A stretch of 64,000 bases of DNA from Escallonia rubra (lineage: Eukaryota; Streptophyta; Magnoliopsida; Escalloniales; Escalloniaceae): contig JAVXUO010000974.1 in assembly GCA_033065855.1 (NCBI GenBank), positions 62,001 to 126,000 of the forward strand, written 5' to 3'. A program made the position numbers and the translations under genes. How positions within the stretch are numbered: the first letter of the stretch is position 1; each line of letters opens with the position of its first letter. Under the pieces are notes generated by a model. It worked only from the letters and a program-made list of their open reading frames with translations, was not told the DNA's origin and made no database searches. Positions 17,961 through 59,932 of this stretch are shown one piece after another.

Positions 17961-17962
<2 letters not shown>

Positions 17963-18085: not shown

Positions 18086-18149
<64 letters not shown>

Positions 18150-18152
<3 letters not shown>

Positions 18153-21960: not shown

Positions 21961-24327
21961 CTTTTATTTAATTCTATGACTTGTTGAGAATGATATAATT
22001 TTTATTTTATAGATTTCAGTATAAATAAGGATGCAACTAAAGGAAGTAATTTTTGTGAAGGTTCTGATCCACCTTACTTGGGTCAAGTTTTTCAAACACT
22101 GGACGAAATTGAAGCATACTATAGAGCATATTCGAAAACGATGGGTTTCGGTATTAGAACTAAGACGACTAGAAAACGGGTGAATACAGATCAAATTTGT
22201 GCAAGACTATTTGAGTGTCATAGAGGAGCACCGCATGTACCCCCGGTCGTTCAGATCAGTGACGAAGGGACAACAAGACAAAGAAAACGGGACACATTTC
22301 CGGGTACCGGCTGCAAGGCCCATGTGTATGCAGTACACCAGAAAAATGAAAACCATTGGGTTGTGACGGGAGTGGAGTTGAGTCATAATCATCAGTTGAT
22401 GACCCCTAGTAAGATTGGTCAAATTCATCAACACCGAGAAATAAGCGCGGCACACAGACAACTGATTTTTACAATGGCCGGGGCTAAAATTCCACCTTCT
22501 AAGATGATGGGGGTTTTCTCAAGCCAGGCTGGGGGGATTGACAAGTTGAGTTTCAACGAAGTAGACCTTCGAAATGAACTTCGTGCTCAGAAGAGAGAGT
22601 CTTTCGGTAAGAGTGATTCTCAAGCTACACTTGATCTCTTCAGGTGCCTTCAGAGTGAGAATTCTGGATTTTTCTACAGTCTCCAACTGGATGATGAGAA
22701 CCGCATTAGTACTATATTTTGGGCGGACCCCCGTTCTAGAGCTGCTTACCAAAATTTTGGGGATGTTGTGACGTTTGACACCACATACCGCACCAATAAG
22801 TACTCTATGCCTTTTGCTCCGTTCACCGGGGTGAACCACCACTATCAGTCAATCTCGTTTGGCTTTGCCCTGCTTAGGGATGAGACGGAGGAGTCATTTA
22901 CGTGGTTATTTGAAACGTGGCTTAAAGCAATGTATCATATTCCTCCAAAGACCATCATCACCGACCAAGATCTGGCAATGAAAAATGCAATCGCTAAGGT
23001 CCTTCCAGATACTCACCATGGCCTGTGCACATGGCACATAAGCAACAAATATCCCGAACGGCTTCACAATGTATATGCAAACCATCCGGAATTCAAGACT
23101 GACTTTAATACATGTGTGAAGAAATCGTTGACGGTAGACGTGTTCGAGGAGAGGTGGGCCACGTTAATGGATGACTACTATTTGCACAATCATGACTGGT
23201 TACAATCGTTGTATGAGATCAAGACACAGTGGGTCGGTGCCTACACCAAGAAGTTTTTTGCAGCCGGAATGACTACGACCTCGAGAAGCGAAGCTATGAA
23301 TTCATTCTTTGATGGGTACGTAAGCCAGTCTTCAAGTATAGTGGAGTTCGTACTAGAGATGCAGAAAGCCGTTGACAGGCAATTGTACCGTGAGAGAGAA
23401 GCCGACGCGGCTACAGTTTACAGAGAAAGAGCCATACTACTCTTTTCACCTTTGGAGGCTCATGCGGCTCAAGTCTATACCAAGGAAATGTTTAGACAGT
23501 TTCAAGATGAACTACTAAAGTCGAATCAATATGGCATGACAAAGTTGCACGAGTATTCCACCAGAGATCTCAAGGTTTATGCTTTGACAAATGTGACGAA
23601 TTTTGCCAATTCGTGCTCTTCGTCGACTCCGAGGAACATAAGACATTTTACCGTGGCTAAATGTATGGACACCGGGTTGGTAAATTGCAACTGTCAACTG
23701 TTTGAGCATAAAGGTATACTTTGTCGACACGCGTTGAGGGTTTTGAGCGCCAAGAATGCTCGTGAAATCCCTCCACAGTATATCTTGGAACGGTGGACGA
23801 AGGAAGCCAATAGAGTCCACGGTCACATTCCTTACGTGCCCAATGTTTCAGTTGATTTCGAGCAATCTGAGATGCTGCGATATAATCACCTTTGTAACAT
23901 CATGCACGGTTTATCATTGGATGCAGCGTCAACATTTGATGGGTACAGGTATCAAGTTGAAGCAGCCGCACGGGATAAGGCTAAGCATGCACAGTTTAGG
24001 ATGGCATTACCAGAAAGACGGGACACTCCGACTACTCGGACGACTCCAGCCGGTAGATTCGATCGAGCCAAACAGCCAGTCATTGACGGCACTAGCATGC
24101 AAGGTGAGGAGGACGACATTTTTTATCCAATTATTTCTCAAACAAAAGGGCGAAAACGAGAAATACGCATGAAGAATCCGATTGAAAAAGCAACGGGTCA
24201 AAAAAAATTGCGAAAGTGTGCGTTGTGTAATAAGATGACTGATCATGACAAGAGAAACCATTATAAAGTGTTAGGTCTCGAACCTGGCAGTATGGTCGAG
24301 GAGGACGATGATGATGAAGAGTGTTAG
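18890..24327 (+). CDS. MULE transposase, FAR1/FHY3-like, two exons
   Basis: Exon 1 (18890-18960) starts MLEDRWITATRSV and ends at a consensus donor (GTAAGT, 18961). Exon 2 (22020-24327) follows an acceptor (ATTTCAG). The phases fit, giving 792 residues with no stop. The intron (18961-22019) is made of the arm's tandem units. Domains, numbered from GQVFQ in exon 2 (add 43): FAR1 zinc-binding domain 1-110 (C47, C79, H103/H105); MULE DDE core with D234 in FDTTYR, D296 in ITDQD, CTWH 317-320 and an E in FEERW 356-360; SWIM finger C537, C539, C549, H551; C-terminal CCHH knuckle C714, C717, H723, H728; acidic tail. It should bind the arm ends and catalyse cut-and-paste. All expected catalytic residues are present. 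The exon 1 assignment is inferred from splice signals and phase. Confidence 0.88.
18961..22019 (+). other. Transposase intron 1, built from the arm's tandem units
   Basis: Donor CAA/GTAAGTATT at 18960/18961 and acceptor TAGATTTCAG/T at 22019/22020. Exon 1 leaves two bases and exon 2 supplies one before ATA AAT AAG, so the frame is kept. The same donor block occurs in the mirrored arm at 31195. Confidence 0.65.
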
Positions 24328-24437
24328 GGTTAATGTTTCAGTTGTATAACGAATAACTTTTATAATGTTTAAATTTGTGATTTGGTTTGTTGAATCTTTA
24401 ATTTGTGATTTGGTTTGTGGATTATTGATATTTTTGG
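24328..24437. other. 3' region of the transposase gene
   Basis: Short AT-rich stretch (TTTGTGATTTGGTTTGT twice) between the stop codon and the satellite-like array. It probably holds the polyadenylation region. Confidence 0.4.
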
Positions 24438-25855
24438 AAGGGCCTATTCGCGCACACTTTAGGGCCCAATTCATTGCTTCCTAAAAATCTTGTACATTTT
24501 GTTGTTCATTGCACCTCAGGCACGCTAGTTAGCCCATTCGTAAGAATTTCGGCGAAAAACGAGACACGTTATTTTTTGGGTTTTCCTATGAAGGGCCTAT
24601 TCGGGCACACTTTAGGGCCCAATTCATAACTTCTGAAAAATCTTGTCATTTTTTTTGTCACTTTTTTTTCGCTCATTGCACCTCAGGCACGCTAGTTAGC
24701 CCATTCGTAAGAATTTCGGTGAAAAACGAGACACGTTATTTTTTGGGTTTTCCTATGAAGGGCCTATTCGGGCACACTTTAGGGCCCAATTCATAACTTT
24801 CGAAAAATCTTGTCATTTTTTTTGTCACTTTTTGTTCGCTCATTGCACCTCAGGCACGCTAGTTAGCCCATTCGTAAGAATTTCGGCGAAAAACGAGACA
24901 CGTTATTTTTTGGGTTTTCCTATGAAGGGCCTATTCGGGCACACTTTAGGGCCCAATTCATAACTTCCAAAAAATCTTGTCATTTTTTTTGTCACTTTTT
25001 GTTCGCTCATTGCACCTCATGCACGCTAGTTAGCCCATTCCTAAGAATTTCGGCGAAAAACGAGACACGTTAATTTTTGGGTTATCCTATGAAGGGCCTA
25101 TTCTGGCACACTTTAGGGCCCAATTCATAACTTTCGAAAAATCTTGTCATTTTTTTTTTTTTTTTTTTTCGCTCATTGCACCTCAGGCACGCTAGTTAGC
25201 CCATTCGTAAGAATTTCGGCGAAAAACGAGACACGTTATTTTTTGGGTTTTCCTATGAAGGGCCTATTCGGGCACACTTTAGGGCCCAATTCATAACTTC
25301 CGAAAAATCTTGTCACTTTTTGTTCGCTCATTGCACCTCAGGCACGCTAGTTAGCCCATTCGTAAGAATTTCGGCAAAAAACGAGACACGTTAATTTTTG
25401 AGTTTTCCTATGAAGGGCCTATTCGGGCATACTTTAGGGCCCAATTCATAACTTCCGAAAAATCTTGTAATTTTTTTTTTCACTTTTTTTCGCTCATTGC
25501 ACCTCAGGCACGCTAGTTAGCCCATTCGTAAGAATTTCGGCGATAAAAAAGACACATTATTTTTTGGGTTTTCCTATGAAAGGCCTATTCGCGCACACTT
25601 TATCGCCCAATTCATAGCTTCCGAAAAATGTTGTAATTTTTTTTGTCATTTCTTTTTTGCTCATTGCCCCTTAGGCACGCTAATAGGCCATTTATATGAA
25701 TTTCGGCGAAAATCGAGACAAATAATTTTTTTGGTTTTCCTATAAAAGACATATTCGCGCACACTTTATCGCCAAATTCATAGCTTGCGAAAAATTATGT
25801 ACATTTTTTTAAGGGGTTCTTTGCTCATTGCACCTTAGTCACGCTAGTTAGGATA
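24438..25855. repeat. Tandem array of ~165-bp units between the convergent MULE genes
   Basis: Nine units, starting near 24438, 24591, 24758, 24924, 25092, 25258, 25412, 25579 and 25744 (spacing 153-168 bp). Each has AAGGGCCTATTCGGGCACAC, a CTCATTGCACCTCAGGCACG segment, an AGAATTTCGGCGAAAAACGA segment and a poly-T tract. The first six or seven are highly similar; the last two (right) are degraded. The length is near one nucleosome repeat, like plant satellites. No coding capacity. Confidence 0.95.
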
Positions 25856-28703
25856 ATGGTAATGAAGGCATCTAGCTTCATTCTTTTTCAGCTCCCAGGC
25901 TATCCTATACCTAAACGTCAAGGCAGCCTTCCTAGTCCACGACGTATATTTGAGCACCTCCGAGCGAGCAATGTAGTCCATGTACTTGAGGACGTAAATC
26001 CCACAATCGTGACTGTTATATTGCTTTGGTCGGTCCTGTATCATCACGACCGTCCAAGGCTCTACCGTCGAATTCCTGGTGATGGATTCCCCCGAATAAT
26101 CTCGGCACGCTAGCGAGAAGATAGTAGTCTGCATCCAACAATAAAAAAGGCCATCAAGCCTATGTTACAATAAGAATATACTATGAGCCAAGGTCAACCG
26201 ATAAAAACTAACCACTGCAGTGATGTACTCGCTGTACATCTGTGCCAGCGACCGCCCATGAGAGTCCTCCCTTAGGCTATCGTATATGTTGACCGCTCTG
26301 TTCGCTGGATGGAGAACTAATAGGAACCAGTGGTTTTCATGATGGCAAGGTATCATGATAAGGTTCGCATGAGCAGCGTGACATTGATAGTCTGCGTTCA
26401 ACAGGGCTAACACGTTTCCAGCTGGTTTCCACTTACCCATGCCTGCCCCTCGCCTCCTCCATTCTGTTAACTCCCTCATGCTGGTCACCATTAATGTGAC
26501 AAAATAAGTGGGATACATGTTAAGCTTCAAATCTTCGCACTGGTTATAACGTAGCTCTCTAATCCGGAGCAGATCTATATAAGCGTTCATGACAAAATTT
26601 GAAATATCTGTCTCCGGTGCCAACATTCTCACATCCTCGTGACTTAGGAATGTTTCAAGAGGAAAGTCTGAGGTATCGACAGGCTCAGGCCCGAAGTAGT
26701 GCCGGTCGATCCAATCCCGCTTCCACTGCCTCAATGGCTTTGTCGCTTGTCCTTTATCCGACCGGATGCTTGGGCGCGAGGCCTGGATTCCTACTTGGGT
26801 CACCTGACTCTGGCGCTGAGAGTCGTACGTGTCAGGAGGCAAGCGACTAGACGGCTCCCAGAATTCCCTCTGGGGCAAAGACGCGTCAGGAGGCAAGCGA
26901 CTAGACAGCTCCCACACCACACTCTGGGGCACAGAGTCGTACGCGTCAGGAGGCAAGCGACTAGACGGCTCCCACACCTGACTCTGGGGCTGAGAGCCGT
27001 ACGCGTCAGGAGGCAAGCGACTAGACGGCTCCCCTTGGTAACCCCGGTACGCAACACTAAAGTTGTGAAGATCAGCCTTGTACCTCTCAATAGAGCTTTT
27101 GAGACTGTCAGGCGCATGCGCGACATACCAGTCAAACCGCTCGAGCTGCTTGAACACCTCAGTGCCCTGGTCAACCTAAAAAACATGCATAGAAAAATCA
27201 CCGTCATCATTTCAGGCATGGTCGAGAAGGTGCGCAAATAAATATTGAAACAACACTAGGTTGACTTACAATGCTCAATGCCCAGAACTGGTCATAGACC
27301 TCACGTGGCGCATACGATGTCTTCCTCACTTGGGAAGGGCGATTCACCCTCGTGCGCGTCACCTTGAGAAACCATTGCAGGTACTCCTCAGTACTGGTGC
27401 CGTCGTCCTTGAGCGATACAAGGCTACCATACGTTTCTTGCCAAGTATTCCACTGTTGCACCTCGTCGCTCAGCGAATTCAAGGCATCAGGCACCTCAAA
27501 ATTCAGACCTCGACCGCTCCTGTATAGCTGTATGTCTACAGCGGGTTTTGGTATCCCTTGTAGACAGCCAGCTTGTTTCATAGCTCGATCGGGCATCTGA
27601 AACTCACATACTTCGAAGTGAATAAGTGGCACCCGAACCAAACCTGCCAGCACGTACGACACCGGAAGTTGCCAACACCACTCATCCAACCGATGCATCA
27701 CCTTCCCATATGGCTGCCACGTCACCTGGGATGCATCCATCATATCTAGTTCCCCCCGATAGAACATTAGATGGTGGTGAGGGTCTACCCGTCTCCTCCG
27801 TTTGGTCGTAGGCCCACACCCTCGGCCACGTCTCATCGGACTCAGCTCCGGGCTGTGGACGACCTGTGGGTAGCCTCCCGTAAGACCAAACCGGTGAATG
27901 TAAACATTATATGGAATTAGTAATTAATCACGAATATATTGACACGTCAACCAAGAATATAAATGCTCAAACCTGTAACAGAGTGATGCAGGCGGTAATG
28001 GACTTGGCACCCTTTCTCGTAGCTTTGTGCAATGCTCGATATAGGTGCGCAAGGACAGCTGAACCCCACGAATACGAGTATACCTCCTCAAGATCCTCCA
28101 AGAACACCATATACTTCGGATGCACCGTGTTTTTTGAATGCGTCGGAAGTAATATAGCTCCAGTAATATACAAAGGAATGCCTTCGTACACGTCACCAAA
28201 TCATGAGGAGTGTATTCATCCGGTAGCTCACCATACTGCTCTCTCAGCCATTTAAGTTTTATGCTGTTGGTTGTATGAGCTTCCCTCGGAATTCCTGAAA
28301 AATACTGCCTAGCCATCTTCGCTATGGATGCAGACGTTTTGCTCGAAGTAATGGGTCTGCCGTGACATGGGATTCCAAGTATAAATCCGACGTCCTCTAA
28401 TGTAATAGTCATTTCACCAAACCGGAAGTGAAATGAGTTCGTCTCGCCCCTCCATCGTTCAACTAGAGCGGATATAAGGCAATCGTCGTGCCGAGACCAA
28501 ATCCCGCAATCGGTGAACATGGTCAAATTTTGACGGTGTAATAGTTGTATTTGTTCCTTGGTCAGTACCCACTCGTCAAGGTGACTTGTGCTTTGAATTG
28601 TTTCCAAAACACCCCTATCGACACCGTCAAATACGTGCCTCGCGACGTGCTCATCGTCATCGTATAGGATTGATGTATCATGAGGTCCAGGGTTGAAATC
28701 CAT
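25844..28703 (-). pseudogene. PMD-linker-Ulp1 fusion gene of the MULE, partly decayed
   Basis: Exons on the minus strand: 28703-27973, ~27895-27270, 27175-26213, 26128-25844. The first two encode a plant mobile domain (PMD, PF10536 type): MDFNPGPHD start, MTITLEDVGFILGIPCHGRP, RVDPHHHLMFYRGEL, PLIHFEVCEFQMPDRAM. The third has a linker of four 20-residue repeats (SSRLPPDA core) then a Ulp1/C48 peptidase: His in HHENHWFLLV, Asp in VNIYDSL; the fourth has the nucleophile in NSHDCGIYVLKYMDY. Clear GT-AG introns lie at 27176-27269 and 26129-26212. The PMD part is shifted in frame near 28165 and near 27790, and the acceptor before ~27895 lacks AG, so this copy is probably not functional although the protease part is clean. 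C48 proteases usually cleave SUMO; the real substrate here is unknown. Confidence 0.85.
26815..27035 (-). repeat. 60-bp tandem repeat encoding the PMD-Ulp1 linker
   Basis: Four 60-bp units (GTCAGGAGGCAAGCGACTAG at 26827, 26887, 26947 and 27007), in frame, encoding 20-residue Pro/Ser-rich repeats. Confidence 0.92.
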
Positions 28704-29119
28704 ATCTCTAAGAACAAAATATAATCGTAAACCAACTTAGCGTCCATAATATTTACATTCCAAAACTGTAACTGAATCGTTAACCTAGCTTACCAACGCA
28801 TTAGCAATAGTCAATAAATCATTATTTTAATGTATTAAAACCATTCCTCACTTCCCACCACTCCGAACGCCTAATAACGCAAGTTCCCAAAATTTAGCGC
28901 CAACGTGGTTATTTAGCAATATCCCCCCCCCCCCCCCCCGCGATGGCCGCTACACCCCCAACACCTCAAAACCGCGTTAAAACCACTTTTTAAATGTATT
29001 ACATCAATTATATACCAAATATTTCCTCAGAATATTTTAAGGGGGAAAGTTACCAAAACACCCCCAACTTATGCAAAATACCCTGTGGCAGTCATCGCCC
29101 CAACAAACATCTCAGAACA
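28704..29119. other. Non-coding part of the PMD-Ulp1 leader intron
   Basis: Acceptor TTGTTCTTAG (minus strand, AG at 28709-28708) four bases before the PMD ATG. A poly-C run lies at 28923-28939 and AT-rich sequence leads to the arm repeats. With the donor at 31195 this makes a ~2.5-kb leader intron (28708-31195). Confidence 0.5.
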
Positions 29120-31901
29120 ACTTTAAAATAACTTTTCGGGTGTCTCACACCCTTTCCTGAACTAAAAGTCATTCGGAAAATTTGTGTAATGTAAAATTAG
29201 GAAAATAGCCTCCGATGAGCGGCAAATTACCGAAATGGCCCGGGGTTCATTATCACCCCAACGCCCCAAATCAGCTTCAAAACAACATTTCAGGTGCTTT
29301 GCTTACATTTATGGACTAAAAAGTCGTTTGAAAAACTTGACACCGTAAAATTACCAAAATACCCCTCTCGGGGTGGCAAATTACCAAAATGCCCCCTGGC
29401 ATCAGGAAAAATCTCAAAAGTGCTTTAAGATGCTATTTTAAGCTTCCTGAATTCATTCTTGATCTAAAAAGTATTGTACAAAAGTTTCGCCCAAAAATCC
29501 CGAACCGGTGTCCGGATCGAGCGCTTAAAAGCCCGTTCGGCAAAAAAATTGCTAACGGCTTCGGAATGGCCCGAATTCCTGGGAAATGGAACTTCCCAAC
29601 ATCCTAGGGTTCTCAAAAAAGTTTCGCGCGAAATCGCGCTAGCTTGATATTTTAAATTACACTACAAAGTTACAAGGTTGCGCGTATCAGTTAACCCGTT
29701 TACACTCTGTGGAAAATTCTGAATTTTTTTCCTGATACACATATTTTAAAAATAACTAGGGTCTCTTGTTTGTACTTTCGCAAAATCTAGCTCTAGCTAT
29801 TTTTTATAAATTCATGAAAAACTATCTAATTAAGTTTTTACCTTTAGCGACAGTTACGCCCCGCGAACCGGCTTCAAATCAGCCTTTCAGGTGTTTTGCT
29901 TACATTTCTGGACTAAAAATCCCTTTCAAAAACTTGACACGGTAAAATTACCAAATATCCCTCTCGGGGCGGCAAATTACCAAAATGCCCCCTGGCATCA
30001 AGAAAAATCTCAAAAGTGCTTTAAGATGCTATTTTAAGCTTCCTGAACTGATTCGTGATCTAAAAAGTATTTTACAGAAGTTTCGCCCAAAAATCTCGAA
30101 CCGGTGTCCCGATCAAGCGCTTAAAAGCTCGTTCGGCAAAAAAAATCCTAACGGCTTCGGAATGGCCCGAATTCCTGAGGAATGGAACTTCTCAACATCC
30201 TAGAATTCTCAAAAAGGTTTCGCGCGAAATCGCGCTAGCTTGATATTTTAAATTACACTGCGAAGTTACAAGGTTGTGCGTATCAGTTAACCCATTTCCA
30301 GTCTTTGAAAANATCTGAAAATTTTACCTGATATAGATAGTTTGAAAATAACTAGGGTCTCTTGTTTGCACTTTCGCAAAATCTAGTTCTACCTATTTTT
30401 TATAAATTCGTGAAAAAAATGCCTACTTAAGTTTTCACCTTTATCTATAATTACGCCGCGCACACCCGAATCAAACCAACATTTCTGGTGTTTTACGTAT
30501 ATTTCTGGACAAAAAAGTTGTTTGAAAAACTTGACAGGGGAAAATTACCAAAACACCCCTCTCGTGGTGACAAATTACCAAAATGTCCCTGGCATCAGGA
30601 AAAATCTCAAAAGTGCTTTAAAATGCTATTTTAAGCTTCCTGAGTTCATTCTTGATCTAAAAAGTATTTTACGGATTTTTCGCCCAAAAATCGCGAACCG
30701 GGGTCCGGATCGAGCGCTTAAAAGCCGTTCGGCAAAAAAATTGCTAACGGCTTTGGAATGGCCCGAATTCTTAGAAAATGGAACTTCCCAACATCCTAGG
30801 GTTCTCAAAAAAGTTTCGCGCGAAATCGCGCTAGCTTGATATTTTAAATTACACTACAAAGTTACAAGGTTGCGCGTATCAGTTTACCCCTTTCCAGTCT
30901 TTGGAAAAATCTGAAATTTTTACCTGATACAGATCTTTTAAAAATAACTAGGGTCTCTTTTTTGTACTTTGGCAAAATCTAGCTCTAGCTATTTTTTATA
31001 AATTCGTGAAAAATCCTAATTTTGACGCCCTAAAAAATCGCTATTTTGGAATCTTTCGAATGTAATACCCCGATTTGTAAACACGTAATTTTAGACTATG
31101 GTAAGAACAATTTAAGCGTAACACAATTTAAACAATCAATTGGTAAGAACAATTTGAAATTAACATTGAATTATAAGAAAATTCAAAATACTTACTTGTT
31201 TTGACTTGATATATTTAACGAAAAATCCACCGATCTTCTAGCGGTTATCCACCGATCTTCTAGCGTAAAATTTTTTTGTTTGTATTGTTGTGGAGATTAT
31301 GTAGGTGAGATATGGAGAATGGAGAATAGAAGAAATGGTTCGGGGAGAAAGGATTTTAAAGAGAGAAAAAGTGAGGGAGAAAGGAGAAAGAAGAAAGAAG
31401 ACGGACAAAAATTGTGCCCGTGAGTGAGCAGTAAGGTGGGGGGAGGGGGAAATGACACGTGGGGGTGGGGGAGGGGGGGAAATGACACGTGGGGGGAAGG
31501 GGGGCATCACGGGGGGAAAGGACAATGGGGTGGGGGCCAAGGGGGGGGGGTGGAGGGGTGGGGCCCTTTTCTCTTTCTTTCTAATTTTTCGGGAAAAGAA
31601 AGGGCCCGAATGCACAAAAAAAAATAAAGGACGGGGGAAAGGAGGGGTGGGGGCCACGGGGGGAGGAGGGGTGGGGGCCACGAGGGGGGAGAAAGGACAA
31701 GCCGTGATTGTTGACCACCATTCCTCTTTCTCACAATTGCCAATCGCAACAAAGAGTTGCGATTGGGCTTTTTGCTTCAATAATTGCAATCGCAACTCTT
31801 TGTTGCGATTGGCTTTTTGCTTTTTTATACAATCGCTGCTAAGAGCAGCGATTCGGTGGAGAAATCACTAATTTCCCACCGGTAGACGTGGATCGCTTCC
31901 C
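29120..31901 (-). repeat. Right terminal inverted arm of the MULE
   Basis: Mirror image of the left arm: about three ~596-bp units (GGCATCAGGAAAAATCTC-type landmarks at 29397, 29993 and 30592), then the promoter/exon block, C-rich (here G-rich) sequence and the hairpin-bearing terminus. It is about 1 kb shorter than the left arm, in line with fewer tandem units. One ambiguous base is at 30312. Confidence 0.9.
31196..31360 (-). promoter_or_regulatory. Mirrored promoter/leader exon for the PMD-Ulp1 gene
   Basis: Complement matches the left-arm block that includes transposase exon 1: same leader (CATCTACATAATC-like, CCACAACAATACAAAC), same GCTAGAAGATCGG block and the same GTAAGT donor at 31195. 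The ATG of the left arm is ACG here, so the exon would be an untranslated leader spliced to the PMD exon at 28707. Inferred from sequence symmetry only. Confidence 0.5.
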
Positions 31902-32307
31902 TATATATATATATATATATATATATTGGAATTTTGAGAAATATATGCCAATAGTGAAAAAGTTAAAGTCACTACAGTTAATTGCATCACAAGTAAACTA
32001 ACACCAGTCTACCTAAGAAAGGAATAACCAAACAAAGAAAAGACACAACCTCAAACCACACAGGCTATAGAACATAAACAAAAGGCTACAATTTGTAGTC
32101 TTCAAAAATAAGGAGGGAGTTTTTAGTATTTAGCGACACTTTGAGCCAAAAGAATATCAACCTGTACATTATTGAACCATTCCTGCTGATATCCATCTTC
32201 GTGACGTAAAGCAAAAGAAGCTATAACTAAAGCTACAGTAAGAACTTTATATCTATCCCTTCCGATATGCACTGAGTGCAAAAATATGTGCGAACCAAAA
32301 TAATTAT
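31902..32307. other. (TA)n and non-coding spacer between MULE and copia
   Basis: (TA)n at 31902-31926, then ~380 bp of AT-rich DNA with no recognisable gene. A 66-residue minus ORF at 32123-32323 overlaps the copia LTR and has no domain. Confidence 0.55.
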
Positions 32308-39784: not shown

Positions 39785-39786
<2 letters not shown>

Positions 39787-39976: not shown

Positions 39977-40008
<32 letters not shown>

Positions 40009-40893
40009 AGCTGATCCGTTGAGAGCGAAATATGAGATTTTGCTAGAACGACGACCTAGATTTTTTTTTTCAAAAACTGTCAGTCGTTCGCGACACTATG
40101 TCGCGAACAGTATTTTTTTACCATTTTGCCCCTCCTCCCTTGTCCGCTACACTGTGCGGCGGATGACTTTCTTGTCCTGACATGTGTCAGGAAAAAGACG
40201 TCCGCTACACAGTGTAGCGGACTACATTTCGACTGACACATGTCAGAAAATGTCCCGTCAATTCTTTACCCCCACGACGGTTACCTTGTCCTTATCTGTC
40301 ACGTCAACAGTGTCCACTACACAGTGTGGTGGACTGTTATTAATGATAAATTGTCCGCTATATAGTGAAGCAGACGTTGTAAACTATCCACTGCATTATG
40401 TGGTGGACAGTTAATATATATTCAAAAAAACCCTAACTACGAAACTCTTCTCCATTCTTTCTACTCATAAATTTTCTCAGCGGCGTTGGCAAGCAGATCT
40501 GCGTAATTTCTTCTTAAGAACACCTTTAATACCCTAATAGATCGCGTAAGTTCATAAAATCAATCATTTACATGTTTGTAATCTATAGTTGTGATGAATA
40601 TTGCGTTTATGCGGACTTTTGATTACGCATTGAACATGTGCTAGCGATGAGAATTTATATACATATATATGTATGTATTTGTTCATGTGCTAGCATTTGT
40701 AAAATCCGATTCTGTGTATGCATATATATATCTATTATACATATGAGTATATACTAACATTGTATGTATTATGCATGTGCTTGCGTTATATGTATTATGC
40801 ATGTGCTAGCGTTGTATTTTTGCGAGCGATTATCAAAATCCAAACTGTAAAATCCAAACTGAGAAAGTTTTTCCATAATTTCAGTTGCAAAAA

Positions 40894-43800
40894 ATGGAAT
40901 TTAACCCTGGAACAGAAGATCCATCCGTGTTATACGACCAAGCCAACCATATCAGTATGCTCATATGGGATGGTGGAGTAAGATACTTAGCGAATAAACT
41001 TTCTTATTCCCGCAAATATTGTATACTTTTGCTTTGCTTAGATTGTATTTATTAATTCGTAGGAAAGAGCACTTCTCACCACAGTAGAAGTATCCAATGA
41101 GTTCACAGCATGGAAATTGAACAAGTCCCAGAAAAGGATACTGCGTGGAATTGGGTTTGGGATTTTCACGCATGGGCAGATCTTTCAACACCTTGACCGG
41201 CACTTAATAGGTGCCCTTGTTGAAAGGTGGAGAAGTGAAACGAATACGTTTCACTTCCCTCTCGGAGAGATGACAATTACCCTAGAAGATGTAGGGTTCA
41301 TCTTAGGGTTACCGGTGACGGGGCGGCCGGTAATTGCTCCTCCGTCGGAAGCAACGAATAAGAGAACCGCTAGGGACTTCTTCACTTCGATACCCTATGA
41401 ACAATTTAGCAGTGGTGGTATAAAGTTAAAGTGGTTGGTAGATACCTACAAGGTTTTGCCGAAAAACTATACGGCCGAGATGCTTGTGCTGTACACACAA
41501 GCCTTCTTCTTGTGGGTGATTAGGGCAATTTTATTTCCAATGACGTCGAAGAACACGGTCAGTGTGAAATTTTTACCGTTGTTGGGTAACCTGCGGGAGG
41601 TTGGGGATTATGCCTGGGGTGCAGCGGTTCTTTCGTATCTGTACCGAGCATTCCACAAGGCAACGAGGCCCGACTCCAAAGCCATATGTCATGTCTTTCG
41701 CTATTGCAGGTATATCATATAAATCCTGATTTTGTTAATTTTTTTTTGTTGAATCGACAATATAAATATAATTTGCCCATGTTATCATGTGTGGTCTTGT
41801 GAACACCTTGCTACCGATGCACCAACGCGCATGGATGAAACCGATAAAGTGTGGCCTCAGTTGTGTGCTTGGGAGTATAGCCGGAAAGAGAGCCACTACC
41901 AGAGGAGAGTTGATCCCTATCACAACATTACGTACTATCAAGGGGAGTTCGACCGTCTATCTCCGGGCCAAATGCGTTGGGCACTGTATAGCCGTTTAGC
42001 ACGACAGGTGGGATAGTCGTTCATCTTCATGCTCTCCGGGTTACATCGCACACCCATGATCCACTTTGAGGTCACAGAGTGGCAGCTGTCAGACCGAGCA
42101 ATGCACCATTTTGACTGCCTACAGGGGTTTTCAGCCGATGCCCCAGATATGAGGGTTAACAGGAACCCACCAGGTGCCGGACGGTTTGGCAAGGCCATTG
42201 CGCACGAATTATGCACGGCCGAAATAGAGCTTTGGAATTCTTGGCAGGACACACTGGTGGCCATCGTGTCGGAGCCTGACCCCATTATCAGTATCGAGCA
42301 GTACACTGAGTGGTACTACCGCATCACGCGGAGGAGAGTAGCCCCAGTAAGGTTTGAACGCGGGGAGAAGTACCACCCTAGGGGTCAGATCGATGAGCAT
42401 ATGGCATACAATCTCGTTAGTTTTCCAACAAGTGTTCTTAATTGAATTTGATGATTATTAATGCCACGCTCGCATTCTTCCAGAAGTTGAGTGAGCGAAA
42501 GGATCTGGTGAGCGCAATGGGCAAGGATTTTCGCCAACAGGATGCTGCATTGGCTTTAGGTTGCAGGAATTTTTTGTGCCAAGTTTCGGGACAATTTTCG
42601 GTCGTCAGCCCGAGAATGAGTTATACGGGCGTCAGCGAGGGATATGGTGATCCTTCGGGATAGGCTTTAGGGGTGAGCTAGGGAGTTGGTGGTCCCTCTG
42701 TAGCAGGGATGGGACAGGCTCAAGCATCGTAGGATGATTACAGCGTCCCCTCCTTCAATTTGTTCCCGGAACCCCAACCCCTCTCTCAGAGTCAAGTCAC
42801 ACAAGACTGGCCTTTCAGAAACTACGGTTTCTCTGAGGCACTGCCCATTATCCCATGGGCGGGACCACTTGGCGCCCCCGGAAGGCAATATCCCCCGTTT
42901 GACCTCCCCAGAGGGCAATATCACACGGTGGAAGAAATGGCCGAAGAGCAATATCAGCTGGTCGAGCCCCCCGAAGGACATTACTAGCCGGCCCAACCTC
43001 CCGAAAGGCAATATCAGCTGGCCGAACTAGGAATTGGAGGCCAATATCCCTTGCTCGAGCCCCCTGAAAGAGGGCAATATTTGTCGATTGACCCCCCCTC
43101 GAAGGAGGGCAATATCCCCCGGTCGACCCCGAGGGCAATATTGCAAAGGGCATCCAACCAGGCCCCTAAAGCCACCTAAATGTGAGCTAATCCGAGCTCG
43201 TTATTTTAGCGGGCCCCCCCGAGACAAAGCGTCGTATGACGTGGATCACCCGGAGGGCTTGGATTACAATTGCTCGTGGTCAAAAATGGCCTCGCTGGCT
43301 CCGGGAGCTTGGTTAGACAACGGTGTCATCTCGTACTACGTGCATATTCTGAGGCAAAGGGGTCGGGAGCAGCCGGCTGACCTTCCGCGCATTTTTATCT
43401 TGGATGCTTATTTTCATGGCATCCTAGTACAAGACTGGCACGAGTGAGTCTCTTCAAAGGGGATGAGAACCCTGACCAGTGGAAACCGTCTGCTAACCTA
43501 CGGGCATATCTTGCTAGGGATAGTCCAGTGAGCGCAAGTGTTGCCGACGTGTTTCTAACCCCATTTTTAGGGAATCACCACTGGTACTTGGTTTGCTATG
43601 AACCAGTAGAGAAGGTCATATCAGTCATCGACAGTCTCCACGATGATACCCCCGAGATGCCTGTGCTTTGTATGTACAAAGGCCTAGGCCAGTTGGATGC
43701 CATGGTAAGATCCTGTTTAATTCTTATTGTAACTTGCATATTGTAAAATTGATTAATGCTTATTCTATTTGCTATGTTTAATGTTTAATGCTTATTATGT

Positions 43801-44121
43801 TTCTCGTAGAATCTATTTTGTGCCTTGGTCAATTCTAGGCGTGACGAAAGAGTACCGAGCAGGCCAAAGCTCCATTTCTTATTGAAGAAGAGGAGGCCCA
43901 AGCAACATAATTCATCGGACTGCGGCGTGTTCGTCTACATGTACATGGATTACATTTGTCGGTCTGAGAGCCTCAGAAAGACCATCTGGATCCGAGAATG
44001 CATACAAGGCTTTAGGTATAGGATAGCTTGGCAAATTATGAAAGGCCGGCCTAGAGCTATTAGGTTTATTGAAAATCCGTGTAATGATGAGAATCGCGCA
44101 GGAGATGAGGGCCCCAATTGA
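40894..44121 (+). pseudogene. PMD-linker-Ulp1 fusion gene of the second MULE, decayed
   Basis: Exon 40894-40977 encodes MEFNPGTEDPSVLYDQ (compare MDFNPGPHD in the other MULE); GT-AG intron 40978-41062; PMD exon from 41063 with MTITLEDVGFILGLPVTGRP and AWGAAVLSYLYRAFHKATR, ending at a donor after TATTGCAG (~41710). The next PMD block is ~41790-42445 (VDPYHNITYYQGEFDRL, PMIHFEVTEWQLSDRAM). A repeat-built linker (42840-43150) leads to the Ulp1 domain: His in GNHHWYLVCY, Asp in VISVIDSL, GT-AG intron 43705-43809, Cys in NSSDCGVFVYMYMDY, stop at 44121. A leader intron 40546-40884 is likely. Breaks include an in-frame TAG near 42014, stops in the linker and a one-base shift near 43445. The catalytic triad itself is preserved. 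Confidence 0.83.
42840..43150 (+). repeat. Degenerate repeat encoding the linker of the second PMD-Ulp1 gene
   Basis: Irregular ~33-39-bp units around CCCGAAGGACATTACT / GAGGGCAATATC, encoding Pro-Glu-Gly-Gln-Tyr-type repeats. Unrelated in sequence to the 60-bp linker repeat of the other MULE. Confidence 0.75.
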
Positions 44122-44519
44122 CATTGTAACATTATATTCATTTTTTTAATAAACATTTATTATCTTTATGAAAGATGTTCTTCATTCATCGGGTTTGAAT
44201 TGATTTGTGTTGACATCAGTTGATCGGTGTTGAATGCGATTGATTTGACTGACCGATTTGTGTTGAAATCAGTTGAGTGTTTGATTTGTGTTGAGATAGC
44301 ATTGGCATTTTGACTGATTTGTGATTTGCTTTGAACGGTGGGAAACAAAGTGTGGGTAAGTGTTGGAGCTTTAAGATTGCGCAGGGCCAAAAAAGTTCTA
44401 AGTATTGAAGTCTTAAATTGTAGTTGACATTTGATTTGGGTTTGAATGATGATTGGAGTTGACATTTAAATTGTGTATGAATTAAGGAATGGTGGGAAAG
44501 TTCTACAAAAAATTTCTGC
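44122..44519. other. 3' region of the PMD-Ulp1 gene
   Basis: AT-rich with repeated TTGATTTGTGTTGA motifs (44200-44330) and no open frame of note. Confidence 0.45.
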
Positions 44520-44990
44520 TGCGCCGTCCGCTACACTGTGTAGCTGACGTATGGGGAATAAATTTTTTTCTAAGTGTTGGAGATCAAAGTTTCTGCTGCG
44601 CCTAAGAAAATTTTTTCTAAGTGTTGGAGCTGAAAGCTTCTGCTGTGCCGTCAGCTATACAGTGTAGCGGACGTGTAGAGAACAAAAAAATTTCTAAGTG
44701 TTGGAGAACAAAGTTTCTGCTGTGCCGTCCGCTACACAGTGTAGCGGACGTGTAGAGAACAAAATTTTTTCTAAGTGTCGGAGATTAAAGTTTCTGCTGC
44801 GCCATCCGCTACACAGTGTAGCGGACGGGTAGAGAACAAAAAAATTTCTAAGTGTTGGAGATCAAAGTTTCTGCTGTGCCGTCCGCTACACAGTGTAGCG
44901 GACGTACATGAAACAATTTTTTTTGAAGTGTTGGAGATCAGACTTTCTGCTGCGCCGTCCGCTAGACATTGTAGCGGACGTCGATAATTC
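44520..44990. repeat. ~80-90-bp tandem repeat with perfect hairpins between the MULE genes
   Basis: About six units, each with CCGTCCGCTACACAGTGTAG followed by CGGACG, then AACAAAATTTTTTCTAAGTG and TTGGAGATCAAAGTTTCTGC. Each unit can fold as a 24-bp hairpin. A few more units occur at 45800-45980 beyond the inserted CACTA block. Confidence 0.9.
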
Positions 44991-44994
44991 TGTT

Positions 44995-45790
44995 TTATGA
45001 AATTGGCGACGGAATAAATGTTTTAGCGACGGAATCAACAATCTCAATATCTCAAATGTACGATTAACAATAAAAAATCATCGATTAACAATCACAATTC
45101 TCAAATGCACAATTAAGAACCTAAAATTCGGAAAAATAATGAACATTAACATAAAATTGTTCATAACTTGATTTAGGGTTCAACATTGGGGGAAAGTTTT
45201 TTCACAAGTGCTCCGATCAAACACCGTCACTTGAAAATTCCAGTTCCCCGTGTGTTCAAAGATTACAAAGTCCCCTAGATGGAGGTCATGCTGCTGCACG
45301 AATTCGTTCCAACCCTCTGCGAAACAAATTTGATCTTGGCTGCACTTCTTCTTGATTCTAACATGCCATGACCCCTTGCGGCTGGTTAAAGTTGAATCGA
45401 AATAAAGTGTGGTAAGCCTTGTGCAAAAGGCTACCGGTATGTCCTAACATATTCATAATACAGTAAGACATGTAAGTTTTTAACCAAAGATAAAACTTTT
45501 AACACACACAAAAACACAGAGAAAGAGGGATGGCCTACAAGTTCAGTATGAAAACCAGGCATTATGACCTTGAAGAAATGTATGCCTACAAGTGCCATGT
45601 TGCCTACAAATTCACTGCTCGACGAATCAGAAGCCATCAGGACGGATCTGTCGCCGAAGGTGGCGCCGCGTCGGGGGGAGGACGGTGGTGTCGCCGGAGA
45701 TGTGGGTCACCGTAGATGGGGTAGCGGCTGGGTGAGAAGTTCGAGACATATAGAGAAACGGGAGAAAGAAGATTGGGCGATCTGATTAAT
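44995..45790. mobile_element. CACTA-derived block inside the second MULE
   Basis: Begins with GCGACGGAATAAATG and TTAGCGACGGAAT, the subterminal motif of the 55.9-kb CACTA family. The following CAACAATCTCAATAT...CGATTAACAATC stretch matches 56320-56410, the B3 gene matches 56516-56948, and the right part (GTGTCGCCGGAG, GGGTCACCGTAGA, GGGAGAAAG) resembles 59440-59560. It is therefore an internally deleted relative of that CACTA element, without its terminal repeats. Confidence 0.78.
45180..45637 (-). CDS. Captured single-domain B3 (REM-like) DNA-binding protein gene
   Basis: Two exons on the minus strand: 45637-45539 (MASDSSSSEF... to HFFKVIMPGFHTEL) and 45443-45180 (DIPVAFCTRL... to CEKTFPQC, TGA stop), joined by a 95-bp GT-AG intron (45538-45444: donor GTAGGC, acceptor ATGTTAG). 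The frame is open throughout, giving 120 residues that are almost exactly one B3 domain: HFFKV strand, IPVAF turn, GSWHVRI, FAEGWNEFVQQHDLHLGDF and FQVTVFD. B3 domains bind DNA in plant REM/VRN1 factors. It has no other domain. It lies in CACTA-derived sequence inside a MULE, so it is a transduplicate; whether it is expressed is unknown. A second copy is at 56516-56948. Confidence 0.75.
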
Positions 45791-45799
45791 ATATAACAG

Positions 45800-46166
45800 G
45801 ATATAGTCGTTCGCTACATTGTGTAGCGGACAAAAAGAACACCAAAAGTTTTTTGGACTCTGCAGAGTCGTCCGCTACATTGCATAGCGGACATAAAAGA
45901 ACACCAAAAGTTTTCTAAGTGTTGGAGTTTTAAGACTCTGCAGAGCCGTCCGCTACACTGTATAGCAAACATAAAATAACCAAAATTTTTCTAAGTGTTG
46001 GAGTTTTAAGACTTGGGGCGAATAAAAAAAAACTTAAAATTAGATTTGATGGCTCTCATAGGTCCATCAGAAAAAAAAATTATAGTCTTCGGTCGAAATA
46101 TTATTAGAAAAAAATTACAAAAAAATATTACAAATGTCAAACAGACTTGATGGCTTATACAAAAAA
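45800..46166. repeat. Further hairpin repeats and 3' side of the transposase fragment
   Basis: Three degraded GTCCGCTACA..TGTAGCGGAC units (45810, 45870, 45945), continuing the array at 44520-44990, then AT-rich sequence to the transposase stop codon. Confidence 0.7.
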
Positions 46167-46735
46167 TTAAAGGTCCACTGCAGCTTGTTCTTCCGCATCT
46201 TCGACGTCATCTTCTTCCTCGTCTTGCAAACCCAAACCCCCTGGACTTATCCACAGTGCCTTGTAATGGTTCCGCTTGTCATGGTCGGTCATTTTGTTGC
46301 ATAATGCGCACCTTCTCAGCTTTTTAGGTTGAGTTGCCTGTTCAATAGAGCTCTTCATCCGCGTAGATCTCTTACGGCCTTTCCTTTGCGATATAATTGG
46401 ATCCAAAGGCCAGATATCATTGTCGTCTTCCTCCCCTAGCTCGTCATCTTCTGACCCCGTCGTAGGCTCGGTGTCAACAGCATTGTTGACTGAAGCTGCT
46501 TCCAACTGGTCGACGATGGGCTCTTGCTGCTGAGCTACCTCGAGGAGATGTTTATATCCGACCATTGTAGCAGCACCCTTTACGGACAAACGGGTGAACA
46601 TCATCACCAGATGATGGCTGACCCCCTGGGGTTGGCCAAGGCCATTTGCCCCTTGACCCCGTTGCTCCAAATAAGCCATCGGCCGATGTTTTTGGTGAAA
46701 AGATGTTCAGGTGGTCGTGGCGTGACGATCGCGCT
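46167..46735 (-). pseudogene. C-terminal fragment of the second MULE's transposase
   Basis: Matches the last ~200 residues of the transposase at 22020-24327: the RHA of its SWIM finger near 46730, then PIISQRKGRKRSTRMKSSIE, KKLRRCALCNKMTDHDKRNH (CCHH knuckle) and an acidic tail. An in-frame stop occurs just after the SWIM remnant. Everything N-terminal, including the DDE core and FAR1 domain, is missing; the similarity ends abruptly near 46735. Confidence 0.85.
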
Positions 46736-55938: not shown

Positions 55939-56515
55939 CACTACAAGGAATAAGGTCTTTAGCGACGGATTTTCCCGTCGCTAAAGGCCTATATTCCGTC
56001 GCTAAAACTTTTAGCGACGGAATTACCGTCGCTAAAAGTCCCTCGTATAAAAGGCCGTTGCTAAAAGTTTTGCGACGGAATTATAAAATCCGTCGTCTAA
56101 TATAGAAATTTTGGCGACGGATTTATTTCTGAATTAGCGACGGAATATCCGTCGCTAATTATGTTTTACGTACTTTAATTTATTTTCTTTTTTACGAAAT
56201 TAGCAACGGGATAAAATGTTTAGCGACGGAATTAATCCGTCGCTAAAAGTTAAAGTCATTTTTTAAATTTTTTAATGCCCAAACCTGTAATAAAAAATTC
56301 AAACCAATTGGGTCCCATCCTCCGTCAACAATCTCAATATATCAAATGCACGATTAACAATCTAAAATCATCGATTAACAAATCATCGATCAATAATCAC
56401 AATTAACAACCTAAAATTATCAAACAAATAGTCAATGTTCACAACATTGTTCAAAATGTACATATCCGATGCGATTAATTTAAAATATTGTCTAATTACG
56501 CCTCAGAGTTCAACA

Positions 56516-56948
56516 TTAGGGGAAAGGCTTTTCACAAGTGCTTTGATCAAACACGCTGACTTGAAAACGCATTTGGCCCATGTGTTGAAAGACTACAAAG
56601 TCTCCTAGATGGAGGTCATGTTCTTGCACGAATTCGTTCCAACCCTCTTCGAAGCAAAGAACCTCTTGGCCAACCTTCTTCTTCAATTTAACAAGCCATA
56701 ACCCCTTGCGACTGGTTAAAGTTGCTTCAAATCTCAATGTGGTAAGCAATCGCCAAAATGCTACTGGTATGGCAATATTCATAATACAGTAAGACATGTA
56801 AGTTTTTAACCAAAGATAAAACTTTTAACACACACGAAAACATAGAGAAAGCGGGATGACATACAAGTTCTGTATGAAAACCAGGCATCATGACCTTGAA
56901 GAAGTGCCTGTTGACTGAAACGTCCCTGTTCACCGAAGCAGAAGCCAT
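56516..56948 (-). pseudogene. Captured single-domain B3 gene in the CACTA element
   Basis: Exon 1 56948-56865 (MASASVNRDVSVNRHFFKVM to FHTEL) ends at a good donor (GTATGT). Exon 2 (~56780-56516) encodes IPVAFWRLLTTL, RKGLWLVKLKKK, FEEGWNEFVQEHDLHLGDF and FQVSVFDQSTCEKPFP with a stop, a full B3 domain. The acceptor AG that the related copy at 45444 has (ATGTTAG) is replaced here by ATATTGCC, so correct splicing is doubtful. Same gene as 45180-45637, with both coding and flanking similarity. Confidence 0.75.
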
Positions 56949-59340
56949 TTAACCTACTTTAACATGAAAAACCAATCGATGATTATTCAATCGACGAGCA
57001 TCAATTTCATAGCTGAATTAAATCTATCAAATTATGTTAAAGTGATGCTAAAAAAACAGATCCACAGTGAGTTGTAGCTAAAATGACTACCACAAAAATC
57101 TCAACTACGCACATCATCATTTCACCACCCAAATAGCCACCTATGTCACGGAAAGTAAGAAGCAAAATGTTGTTGTGCGATAAAGTCCTGAGTAAGAGTA
57201 TCAAGCTATGGCGCATGCTCCATATTACCGCTAATAAGACAGCTCCCGTAGTCTTATATAAGCTTGGTTTTGGGAATCCATCTCCTGTGCAGTTTTAGTG
57301 TCTATTCATATTGCTTCCAATCAAAGGCCACTCTGCCCTTGGGAATAGTGTGTGTGTGTGTGTGTGTGTGTGAAACTATTCTCACCTTTTCCACCACCCT
57401 CTTTTCAAGGGGTTAGCTCCCAAAAATTCTGGTTAGACCAAATATAATCCGCTTTTTGCCTACAAGCATATGAATCCACTTCACTTGTAGCTTGAAACTT
57501 CGGTGGTACCCTTTTGCAAATTTGCAAAGATTACAAGATGTGTGTTAGTCACATTGGCAGCTTTCAAATGTCGCTAAAATGCTTTTGTAGTCTTTTAATT
57601 TGTTCAATCCTTTGATATTCTTGCTGCTTGAAACTCATTACTCAAAAGAAAATCTTTAGTTGCAACCCAATAACGTAGGAAAAGCCTATAATTCCTCCCC
57701 TCTCTCCTGTTTCCCTATAGCGATAAATGATGGTCGCTAAATATGCTTAGTAACTTCGAAATAGGGATACTAAAAAATTGCTGTTAAAATTTGTCTCTAA
57801 TGATGTCTGCAACAAATGTCACTAGCAATATCTACTTATAACTAGTGGTCACTGAATAGGGATTCGTAGGCTATTTCTCTCACAGAGGTTGCACCCAAAA
57901 TCTTCCTAATAAAATTGACACTCTCTCCCTCTCATTTTGAGTGTCTTGTTTGACTTTACATTTTGATTAAGGAAGCAAAAATTAAATACGTTAGCAAGTC
58001 ATAAAACTTACACATTTTCTGCAAAGGTCCCTACAAGCAAAAGTTTCAAGAAAACGCATTAGATGTGATCACCCTATTTTTTAGGGATAATACATAAGAA
58101 AATGTAATGCACTAGCTTGCTATATACTTTGGAACCGACTAAAGTCGAAAGCATGACACTCAAAATGAGACGGCGAGAGTACATCAGAAGATCTCAAGCG
58201 CTCCTAGTCGTCGCTACTTGTTTTGTTCGTGTGTGTGTGTATGTGTGTGAAAGAAAGAGGGGAGGGGAGGGGAGGTGGGGCGGCTATGGGGGTTTGGTTG
58301 GTGGGAGGGATGGTGGGTGGGTGGGTGGGTGGGTGCACACAACACACTGCAAAGCTCGTGTTGGAGCTGCATGGGAATATGAAGGGTGTGGTCCAAAGTC
58401 CAAACTGCATATGAAACTACGATTACAACTACTAGTAGTAGTAGTTTAATTGTTTTGAGATTCGAGCTGATGAATTGAAGAATAGAGGGCCCCCAAGTTT
58501 TATCTCCCTTTTTCTCTCTCTGCAAACGCAATGCAATGCCGTGCCTCGGCATATCAAAAGCATCATCCACAACATCCGCCATTGCTTCTGCTGCATCTCC
58601 CTCCACCATATGCGCTGAGGATCGATATGTGTCTCTCTCTTTTGACGGTTTTTATTCCTTCTCAATAACTCCCTCCCTCCCTCCTCTCTCATATATTCCT
58701 TTCAAACACAATTCCTTCTTAAAAGATATTCCCAGTTCATCCATACCTTAGCTAGCATTTGATCATCTAACAAAAATCTAAAGGACTGCATACAAACAAT
58801 CAAGTATTGTCCATGCTTAACTACCCGATATAGAGCAGCACTATATGCATCAATGATCCATGAACCACAGAGCTGATGCAAAAAACAATCAAGTACTGTC
58901 CATGCTTTAATCGTTTTCGTCATTGTTTGTCTCTCTATGCTCATTTTAAACTTGGATGGTTTTAGGCAAAGATGTGGGCTGATTGATTCTGAATATTACA
59001 GCGTAAGCTTCCTGAAAATGTTCACTAGAGGAGCCAATCTTCCATCTAGCATAGAGTGCTAATGGGCTGTTTCAGAATATTACAGCACTCTCCATCTAGC
59101 CTTCCAAAGAGTGCTGTGTATAGACCTCCACTCTCCAGGGTTGCAATTTAACTAGTATATTAGTGATGAGTACTCTAATTTAGGGCAATTGACAAATTAA
59201 CAAAAAATTGAACCTAAATTGACATACAAATCTAAATAAACCAGGCATAATTTAGGGCATGTAACCTAAATTGAAGACAAAATAACAAAACATTCAGATG
59301 ATTTAGGGCCATTGACATACAAATCTCGAGGTGGGTACGA
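56949..59340. other. Interior of the second CACTA element, no supported gene
   Basis: Non-coding except for a possible captured exon on the minus strand at 58500-58609 (MVEGDAAEAMADVVDDAFDM and on), which I do not recognise. (GT)n lies at 57348-57372 and a GGTGGGTGGG tract at 58300-58335. Low-complexity ORFs here follow from these tracts. Confidence 0.4.
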
Positions 59341-59589
59341 CGGCGGCGGCGTTGGTGGTGCGGCGGCAGTGGTGGGCTTCGTTGCGCGGCGACAGTGGAG
59401 GGCTTTGTGGCACGACCGGAGTGCAAGGCTTGGTGGCGCGGCGTCGGGTGGGGGACGGGAGTGTCGCCGGAGCTGGGTCGCCGTAGAGAAGGGTCGCCGG
59501 AGGTGAGAACGGCGGTGGGTGGGTGAGAGCAGGTATTCAGAGAGAGAACGGGGAGAGAGAAAGAAACCAGATGTGTTTTTAAATGGAGG

Positions 59590-59910
59590 ATCTTTAGCGA
59601 CGGAATAACACCGTCGCTAAAACTCCGTCGGTGAATGTATTATTATAAAGACTTTTTGCGACAGACTTTTTAGCGACGGTTTTGTTCCGTCGTTTAAATA
59701 ATTTAAAAAAAAAATTAAAATTACTAATTTTATAAAAATATTTAGCGACGGTAGGTCCGCCGTTAAAACTCCGTTGCAAAATACTTTTACCGACGGTGTC
59801 TTCCGTCGGTAATAGTATTTTGCAACGGAGTTTTAACGACGGGATATTCCGTCGCTTAAAGACAGTTTTAGCGACGGAATACCTTCCGTCGCTAAAACTC
59901 CGTCGCCAAA
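59590..59910. repeat. Right subterminal hairpin array of the second CACTA element
   Basis: Alternating TTTAGCGACGGAAT and ATTCCGTCGCTAAA cores, about ten copies, next to the terminal inverted repeat. Confidence 0.9.
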
Positions 59911-59932
59911 TACATATTTTCTTGTCGTGTTA

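What the first reader, a model, noticed from the sequence alone, without database searches (positions are those of the whole stretch)
45180..45637. Uninterrupted single-domain B3 gene inside a CACTA fragment inside a MULE
Seen: two exons with GT-AG intron and stop encode 120 residues that are just one B3 DNA-binding domain. The block around it carries GCGACGG subterminal motifs of the CACTA family at 55.9 kb. Inferred chain: host B3 gene captured by a CACTA, then a shortened CACTA taken up by a MULE. A free B3 domain could compete with host REM factors if expressed.
Basis: partly seen in the sequence, partly recalled or inferred. Interest (0 to 1): 0.75.

Follow-up and report, generated by a model that had tools for sequence, protein, structure and literature searches.

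The report
B3 gene riding a MULE transposon
A small, complete plant DNA-binding gene that was once part of one kind of jumping gene has become a fixed passenger of a second kind, which copied it to dozens of places in a plant genome; whether it does anything for its carrier is open.

Summary
Observation confirmed. Minus-strand exons 45637-45539 and 45443-45180 with a GT-AG intron encode 120 residues holding one B3 domain (PF02362, E=5.5e-12). The surrounding block aligns with the CACTA at 55939-59929 (77% over 587 columns, gene included) and keeps two GCGACGG motifs.

Beyond the finding: this is a repeat family. All 40 places that the genome search scored match the 811-bp block at 83-100% (40 is a scoring cap). 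In 8 of 8 loci read (one is the window) the block lies inside a palindromic tandem array of a FAR1-type MULE, next to its transposase gene. A related MULE at 18.1-31.9 kb has the same layout without B3.

The frame is intact in 6 of 8 copies. Signs of selection are modest: 1 coding against 8 noncoding indel events (p=0.012), MULE-CACTA dN/dS 0.44-0.65; against this, copies differ in exons about as much as in noncoding parts.

The host donor could not be sought: the genome machine stopped answering. 'Host gene into CACTA' and 'competes with REM factors' stay untested. A VANC-like accessory role is possible, unproven.

The parts
45539..45637 (-). B3 gene exon 1 (99 nt, ATG at 45637)
45444..45538 (-). 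intron, GT-AG
   Evidence: splice dinucleotides kept in 8 of 8 copies
45180..45443 (-). B3 gene exon 2 with stop
44988..45717 (.). CACTA-derived block as bounded by the three BLASTN pieces to the CACTA at 55939-59929
   Evidence: 51 nt at 82%, 587 columns at 77%, 58 columns at 84%; GCGACGG at 45006 and 45026
44509..44981 (.). MULE central array, 77-bp units with palindrome GTCCGCTACA-CAG-TGTAGCGGAC, left of the block
45805..46013 (.). same array, right of the block
46167..46706 (-). ORF with the C-terminal end of a MULE transposase (shared with copies up to 46615)
   Evidence: 43% identity to the 777-aa transposase at 21994-24327; SWIM finger in the adjoining part in L002 and L003
41063..42445 (+). 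plant mobile domain (PMD) ORFs 41063-41722 and 42017-42445
   Evidence: PF10536 E=1.6e-42 for the first; none for the second, which matches the related PMD by BLASTP
43031..44119 (+). Ulp1-like region
   Evidence: BLASTP to the C48 ORF of the related MULE, E=7e-7 and 5e-10; no Pfam hit of its own for the two ORFs tested
40006..40021 (+). left MULE terminus, GGGAGCTGATCCGTTG after a TA microsatellite
   Evidence: read by eye, right terminus not in the window
55939..59929 (.). CACTA element with TSD TTA (55936-55938 and 59930-59932)
56513..56948 (-). homologous B3 gene in the CACTA; both exons open, intron acceptor altered by a 4-nt deletion
18105..31946 (.). related MULE without B3: transposase 21994-24327 (+), central 167-bp array, PMD and C48 ORFs 28736-26165 (-), long inverted ends; limits approximate

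Best explanation
A CACTA element carried a one-intron, single-domain B3 gene. A CACTA segment holding the whole coding unit but neither CACTA end came to lie in the central tandem array of a FAR1-type MULE, between its PMD/Ulp1-like genes and its convergent transposase gene. From then on MULE transposition copied the B3 gene along with the MULE, to at least 40 places. Shown: the anatomy, the CACTA relation, the shared position in 8 of 8 loci, the intact frame in 6 of 8. Inferred: the direction CACTA to MULE; that the reading frame was under selection while it resided in these elements, so that they made the protein; and that single copies decay afterwards, as is usual for transposon genes. The product should bind DNA through its B3 domain; target and effect are unknown.
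For: CACTA noncoding sequence on both sides of the gene. 40 of 40 scored places match the 811-bp block. Array on both sides of the block in 8 of 8 loci; homology to the PMD/Ulp1 side in 7 of 8 (not seen in the stretch held for L008) and to the transposase side in 8 of 8, L008 through the related MULE. B3-less relative with the same layout. Frame intact in 6 of 8. Indel events 1 coding against 8 noncoding, p=0.012. MULE-CACTA exon 2 dN/dS 0.44-0.65 in 8 of 8 comparisons; p 0.0095-0.047 in the 4 of 8 tested. Chance that exon 2 stays open over that distance 0.037-0.049.
Against: Among MULE copies exons differ about as much as noncoding sequence: exon 1 8.6%, exon 2 6.1%, intron 6.0%, 3' flank 8.1%; pairwise dN/dS 0.24-1.29 in 27 of 28 pairs, undefined in one. 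Substitutions on the tips alone leave 4.8 of 8 intact, not far from 6. Two of the 8 noncoding indels may be one alignment trade-off. The CACTA comparisons share one CACTA sequence. No expression data; no donor gene; one CACTA copy read.
Confidence: 0.7

Rival explanations
1. Pure passenger: the segment was captured by accident, has no function for the MULE, and looks intact only because copies are young; any constraint dates from the CACTA or host stage.
For: Exon and noncoding divergence are alike among copies; dN/dS among copies ranges up to 1.29; 4.8 of 8 intact expected from tip substitutions alone; L003 and L005 are 98.8% identical, so copying is recent.
Against: Fewer coding than noncoding indel events, 1 against 8; L004 and L002-type copies are several percent apart yet open.
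Confidence: 0.45
2. Transposon accessory that works like VANC: the B3 protein binds motifs in the MULE's own array, or competes with REM factors that recruit Pol IV, and so lowers silencing of the family.
For: A DNA-binding gene embedded in a tandem palindromic array of its own element resembles VANC and its tandem-repeat targets (PMC5735166 passages). Arabidopsis REM proteins steer Pol IV, and the REM8 motif AAGCGGAT shares AGCGGA with the array's TAGCGGAC (PMC12270911 passages); this likeness was noticed afterwards.
Against: B3-less MITEs with like ends carry the same palindrome arms, so it may be a transposase site; the B3-less relative has its own array; the REM factors named in PMC12270911 have two B3 domains and a dimerising one, this protein has one; no binding or methylation data.
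Confidence: 0.1
3. The MULE and the CACTA took B3 genes independently from related host genes.
For: Uneven similarity: intron plus 42 nt of exon 1 94%, exon 2 79%. No donor search was answered, so this was not tested directly.
Against: CACTA subterminal motifs and other CACTA noncoding sequence accompany the gene in the MULE block.
Confidence: 0.08

Closest known systems
VANC-bearing VANDAL MULEs, with Ulp1-carrying KIU forms (PMC5735166 passages; PMC10398659 abstract and introduction; PMC13317346 passages)
   Same: MULE carrying a non-transposase gene plus tandem repeats of short motifs in noncoding parts; Ulp1-like sequence in the element
   Different: The protein here is B3, without a DUF1985 match; binding and demethylation unknown; this MULE sits in a TA microsatellite and has a terminal motif, VANDALs are described as non-TIR (PMC13317346 passage)
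MULEs that captured plant mobile domain genes (PMC5418596 passages)
   Same: FAR1-type MULE here also carries PMD sequence; authors speculate about an anti-silencing use
   Different: There PMD is fused to transposase in grasses and Amborella; here PMD is a separate, opposite gene and B3 is an extra cargo
Transduplication by Pack-MULEs and Pack-CACTAs (PMC13317346 passages)
   Same: Non-transposase gene sequence moved by a DNA transposon
   Different: The carrier family holds transposase sequence, and the cargo comes from another transposon rather than straight from a host gene
B3 domain in Gypsy LTR consensus sequences of Aegilops tauschii (PMC9289625 passage)
   Same: B3 domain inside a plant transposon family
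   Different: LTR retrotransposon; no detail on frame or amplification in the passage seen
MuTAnT MULEs of Medicago that target TA microsatellites (PMC4486113, abstract start in a search listing only)
   Same: MULE-type element sitting in TA microsatellites
   Different: Sequence relation not tested

Membership tests
B3 DNA-binding family (PF02362) | Match to the B3 profile above its curated cut-off | tested here: met
   45.9 bits against 30.1
B3 DNA-binding family (PF02362) | Sequence-specific DNA binding | not testable with these tools
   needs DAP-seq or gel shift
REM subfamily of B3 | Groups with REM genes in a B3 tree | not tested
   no host B3 set could be fetched; nearest solved structures include At1g16640 and VRN1, REM membership of these recalled
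MULE (Mutator superfamily) carrier | MULE/FAR1-type transposase | tested here: met
   SWIM tail beside the block in L002 and L003; 43% identity of the window ORF to a transposase with FAR1, MULE and SWIM domains; the window copy itself keeps only the tail
MULE (Mutator superfamily) carrier | Terminal inverted repeats and target duplication | tested here: inconclusive
   left end at 40006 in TA repeats; right end not in the window; full copies could not be fetched
CACTA element at 55939-59929 | CACTA-type ends, 3-bp TSD, subterminal repeats | tested here: met
   CACTACAAGG and CACGACAAGA ends, TTA on both sides, TAGCGACGG repeats
CACTA element at 55939-59929 | Encoded transposase | not tested
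   not scanned
VANC | DUF1985-type VANC protein | tested here: not met
   B3 protein has only PF02362; the PMD ORF has a sub-threshold DUF1985 match, E=0.0035
VANC | Binds repeats of its own element and removes methylation | not testable with these tools
   needs binding and bisulfite data
Pack-MULE | Non-autonomous MULE carrying gene sequence and no transposase | tested here: not met
   transposase sequence adjoins the block in 8 of 8 loci, as a tail or fragment in the stretches held

The most novel reading that the evidence does not exclude
The B3 protein is a MULE-encoded, sequence-specific regulator that binds the MULE's own palindromic arrays, or blocks REM factors that recruit Pol IV, and so shields the family from RNA-directed methylation: a second, independent invention of the VANC strategy from a transcription-factor fold, handed from one transposon superfamily to another.
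Probability: 0.1. Interest if true: 0.88.

Novelty: new variant of a known kind. Interest (0 to 1): 0.5.

Why it matters
Capture of gene pieces by plant transposons is well known. Here a complete DNA-binding gene appears to have passed from a CACTA into a MULE family that also holds transposase, PMD and Ulp1-like sequence, and has been copied to at least 40 places, with its frame intact in 6 of the 8 copies read. Because REM proteins with B3 domains steer Pol IV in Arabidopsis (PMC12270911, abstract and passages), a free B3 domain spread by a transposon is a concrete, testable candidate for interference with that pathway. If it is only a passenger, it is still a clear case of cargo moving between two transposon superfamilies.

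Tried and rejected
Tried without result. (1) Fetching twenty 10-kb copies for element ends, a large dN/dS set and target sites: 29 of 29 genome-fetch runs unanswered (16, 19, 25, 31, 37, 41, 46, 52, 58, 60, 65, 69, 72, 76, 79, 82, 85, 87, 91, 96, 98, 100, 104, 109, 115, 119, 123, 126, 131). (2) Of 21 genome-search searches were answered (2, 14; without loci) and 19 were not: donor protein search 15 (listed above), CACTA search 2 (10, 92), block search 2 (9, 70). (3) Literature searches: no listed title or abstract start describes a B3 gene in a MULE or CACTA; one search returned no paper; the lists were cut (10-20 rows shown of up to 389 papers) and most subscription papers are not in that library. 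One search, on the CACTA motif, gave only unrelated papers in the 10 of 50 shown. (4) The species was not determined.

Considered and rejected. Chance ORF: excluded by Pfam and the copies. REM8 motif likeness as evidence of binding: noticed afterwards, and the palindrome arms occur in B3-less MITEs. Adaptive change on the branch between L004/L007 and the other six: one search lists 10 codons that differ, most of them replacements, but its CACTA column is out of register by one codon and I made no test; not used. The 'x' at codon 14 of L003, L005 and L008 is an alignment slip; one search shows them open. The unit profile was built from units picked by the palindrome, with a few false units; not used. 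The first CACTA start that I used (55944, in queries and) was 5 bases inside the true end 55939. AlphaFold was not run: the spliced protein is not one contiguous reading of the window.

Full report
What was claimed.

The gene. On the minus strand exon 1 runs 45637-45539, the intron 45538-45444 begins GT and ends AG, and exon 2 runs 45443-45180 with a stop; the product has 120 residues. Pfam finds B3 alone, E=5.5e-12. Among solved structures the best 5 of 12 rows are B3 proteins, E 0.00028-0.032; the rest are unrelated, E 0.62-1.8.

The CACTA link. A CACTA element lies at 55939-59929, with ends CACTACAAGG and CACGACAAGA read inwards, TTA on both sides, and many TAGCGACGG repeats. The block around the B3 gene aligns with it in three main pieces: 51 nt at 82% with the GCGACGG motifs, 587 columns at 77% with the gene, and 58 columns at 84% from near the far CACTA end (shorter, low-scoring motif matches not counted). 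About 2.4 kb of this CACTA is absent from the block, and both CACTA ends are absent. The simplest reading is a shortened CACTA; since I read only one CACTA copy, a later gain in the CACTA is not excluded. The CACTA's B3 copy has both exons open but a 4-nt deletion at the acceptor.

The MULE link. The block interrupts an array of 77-bp units (44509-44981 and 45805-46013) built on the palindrome GTCCGCTACA-CAG-TGTAGCGGAC. With one mismatch allowed per arm the palindrome occurs 12 times in the window, against 0 in 19 and 1 in 1 of 20 shuffles. To the right on the minus strand is a transposase tail (ORF 46167-46706); L002 and L003 carry the adjoining part with a SWIM finger. To the left on the plus strand are PMD pieces (PF10536, E=1.6e-42 for one of two ORFs) and an Ulp1-like region, seen by BLASTP to the related element only. 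The left end is at 40006, where GGGAGCTGATCCGTTG follows a TA microsatellite. Homology to the copies stops at 46615, so the right end is not in the window.

A B3-less relative. At about 18.1-31.9 kb lies a related MULE with long inverted ends, a 777-residue transposase with FAR1, MULE and SWIM domains, a central 167-bp array, and PMD and C48 peptidase ORFs facing the transposase. Identity to the finding's MULE is 39-43% for PMD, 28-30% for the Ulp1 part and 43% for the transposase tail. With the B3 protein as query the window gives only the two known genes, plus two hits at E=3.0 and 8.8. The shared layout without B3 suggests that the block is an addition.

Copies. The 461-bp query gave 40 scored matches at 91-100% from 1281 candidates; the 811-bp block gave 40 scored places at 83-100% from 2526 candidates. 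Forty is the scoring limit. I could read 8 places, the tool's best matches, of which L001 is the window itself. The array motif lies on both sides of the block in 8 of 8. The transposase side is recognisable in 8 of 8, in L008 only through a match to the related MULE's transposase gene at 22685-22876; the PMD/Ulp1 side in 7 of 8, not in the stretch held for L008.

Is the gene kept? For: 6 of 8 copies have the whole frame and splice sites; L006 and L007 have early stops, L006 also a one-base insertion. Distinct indel events: 1 in 363 coding nt, 8 in 280 intron and 3' nt, p=0.012; the 22-nt 5' stretch was left out, and two of the eight may be one alignment trade-off. Exon 2 dN/dS between MULE and CACTA copies is 0.44-0.65 in 8 of 8 comparisons; in the 4 of 8 tested, one-sided p is 0.0095-0.047, with one CACTA sequence shared by all. 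Exon 2 would stay open by luck with probability 0.037-0.049 over that distance. Against: mean pairwise differences among the 8 copies are 8.6% in exon 1, 6.1% in exon 2, 6.0% in the intron, 8.1% in the 3' flank and 16.1% in 22 nt of 5' flank; pairwise dN/dS among them is 0.24-1.29, undefined for L003-L005; tip substitutions alone predict 4.8 of 8 intact. I read this as past constraint followed by decay of single copies; a pure passenger remains nearly as likely.

An uneven pattern. The intron with 42 nt of exon 1 (45449-45580) is 94% identical to the CACTA, exon 2 (45175-45441) 79%. Exchange between elements or fast change of exon 2 could do this; unresolved.

How it may work. Shown is only that the gene spreads with the MULE. 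Two published neighbours suggest a function. VANC proteins of VANDAL MULEs bind short motifs in tandem repeats of their own elements and cause loss of methylation (PMC5735166 passages; PMC10398659 introduction). Arabidopsis REM proteins recruit Pol IV (PMC12270911 abstract and passages). A B3 gene within a palindromic array recalls the first. But MITEs at 39785-39976 and about 17962-18088 have like ends and the same palindrome arms without B3, so the palindrome may be a transposase site. I put the VANC-like reading at about one in ten.

Not done. Donor gene, full element ends, target sites and a large copy set needed the genome machine, which answered nothing.

Verdict. Observation confirmed; interpretation partly supported. 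New content: the B3 gene is resident in an amplified MULE family. New variant of a known kind.

Noticed in passing
18105-31946: Near-complete related FAR1-type MULE with long complex inverted ends, open 777-aa transposase frame, 167-bp central array, PMD and C48 peptidase ORFs, lying between TA microsatellites.
   Followed up: partly
39785-39976 and about 17962-18088: Short MITE-like elements in TA microsatellites with ends like those of the finding's MULE and GTCCGCTA..TAGCGGAC palindromes, no B3.
   Followed up: partly
45449-45580 against 56775-56906: The intron and part of exon 1 are 94% identical between MULE and CACTA copies while exon 2 is 79%: the intron is better kept than the coding exon.
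   Followed up: no
38300-38750: Further TAGCGACGG repeats (38416, 38439, 38529), probably another CACTA of the same kind just left of the MULE.
   Followed up: no
47827-50200: A second PMD region (PF10536 E=2.1e-11 and 4.8e-6, the latter below the curated cut-off), not closely related to the MULE's PMD.
   Followed up: no
L003 and L005: Two copies 98.8% identical over 3.46 kb with identical exon 2: recent movement, or duplicated contigs.
   Followed up: no
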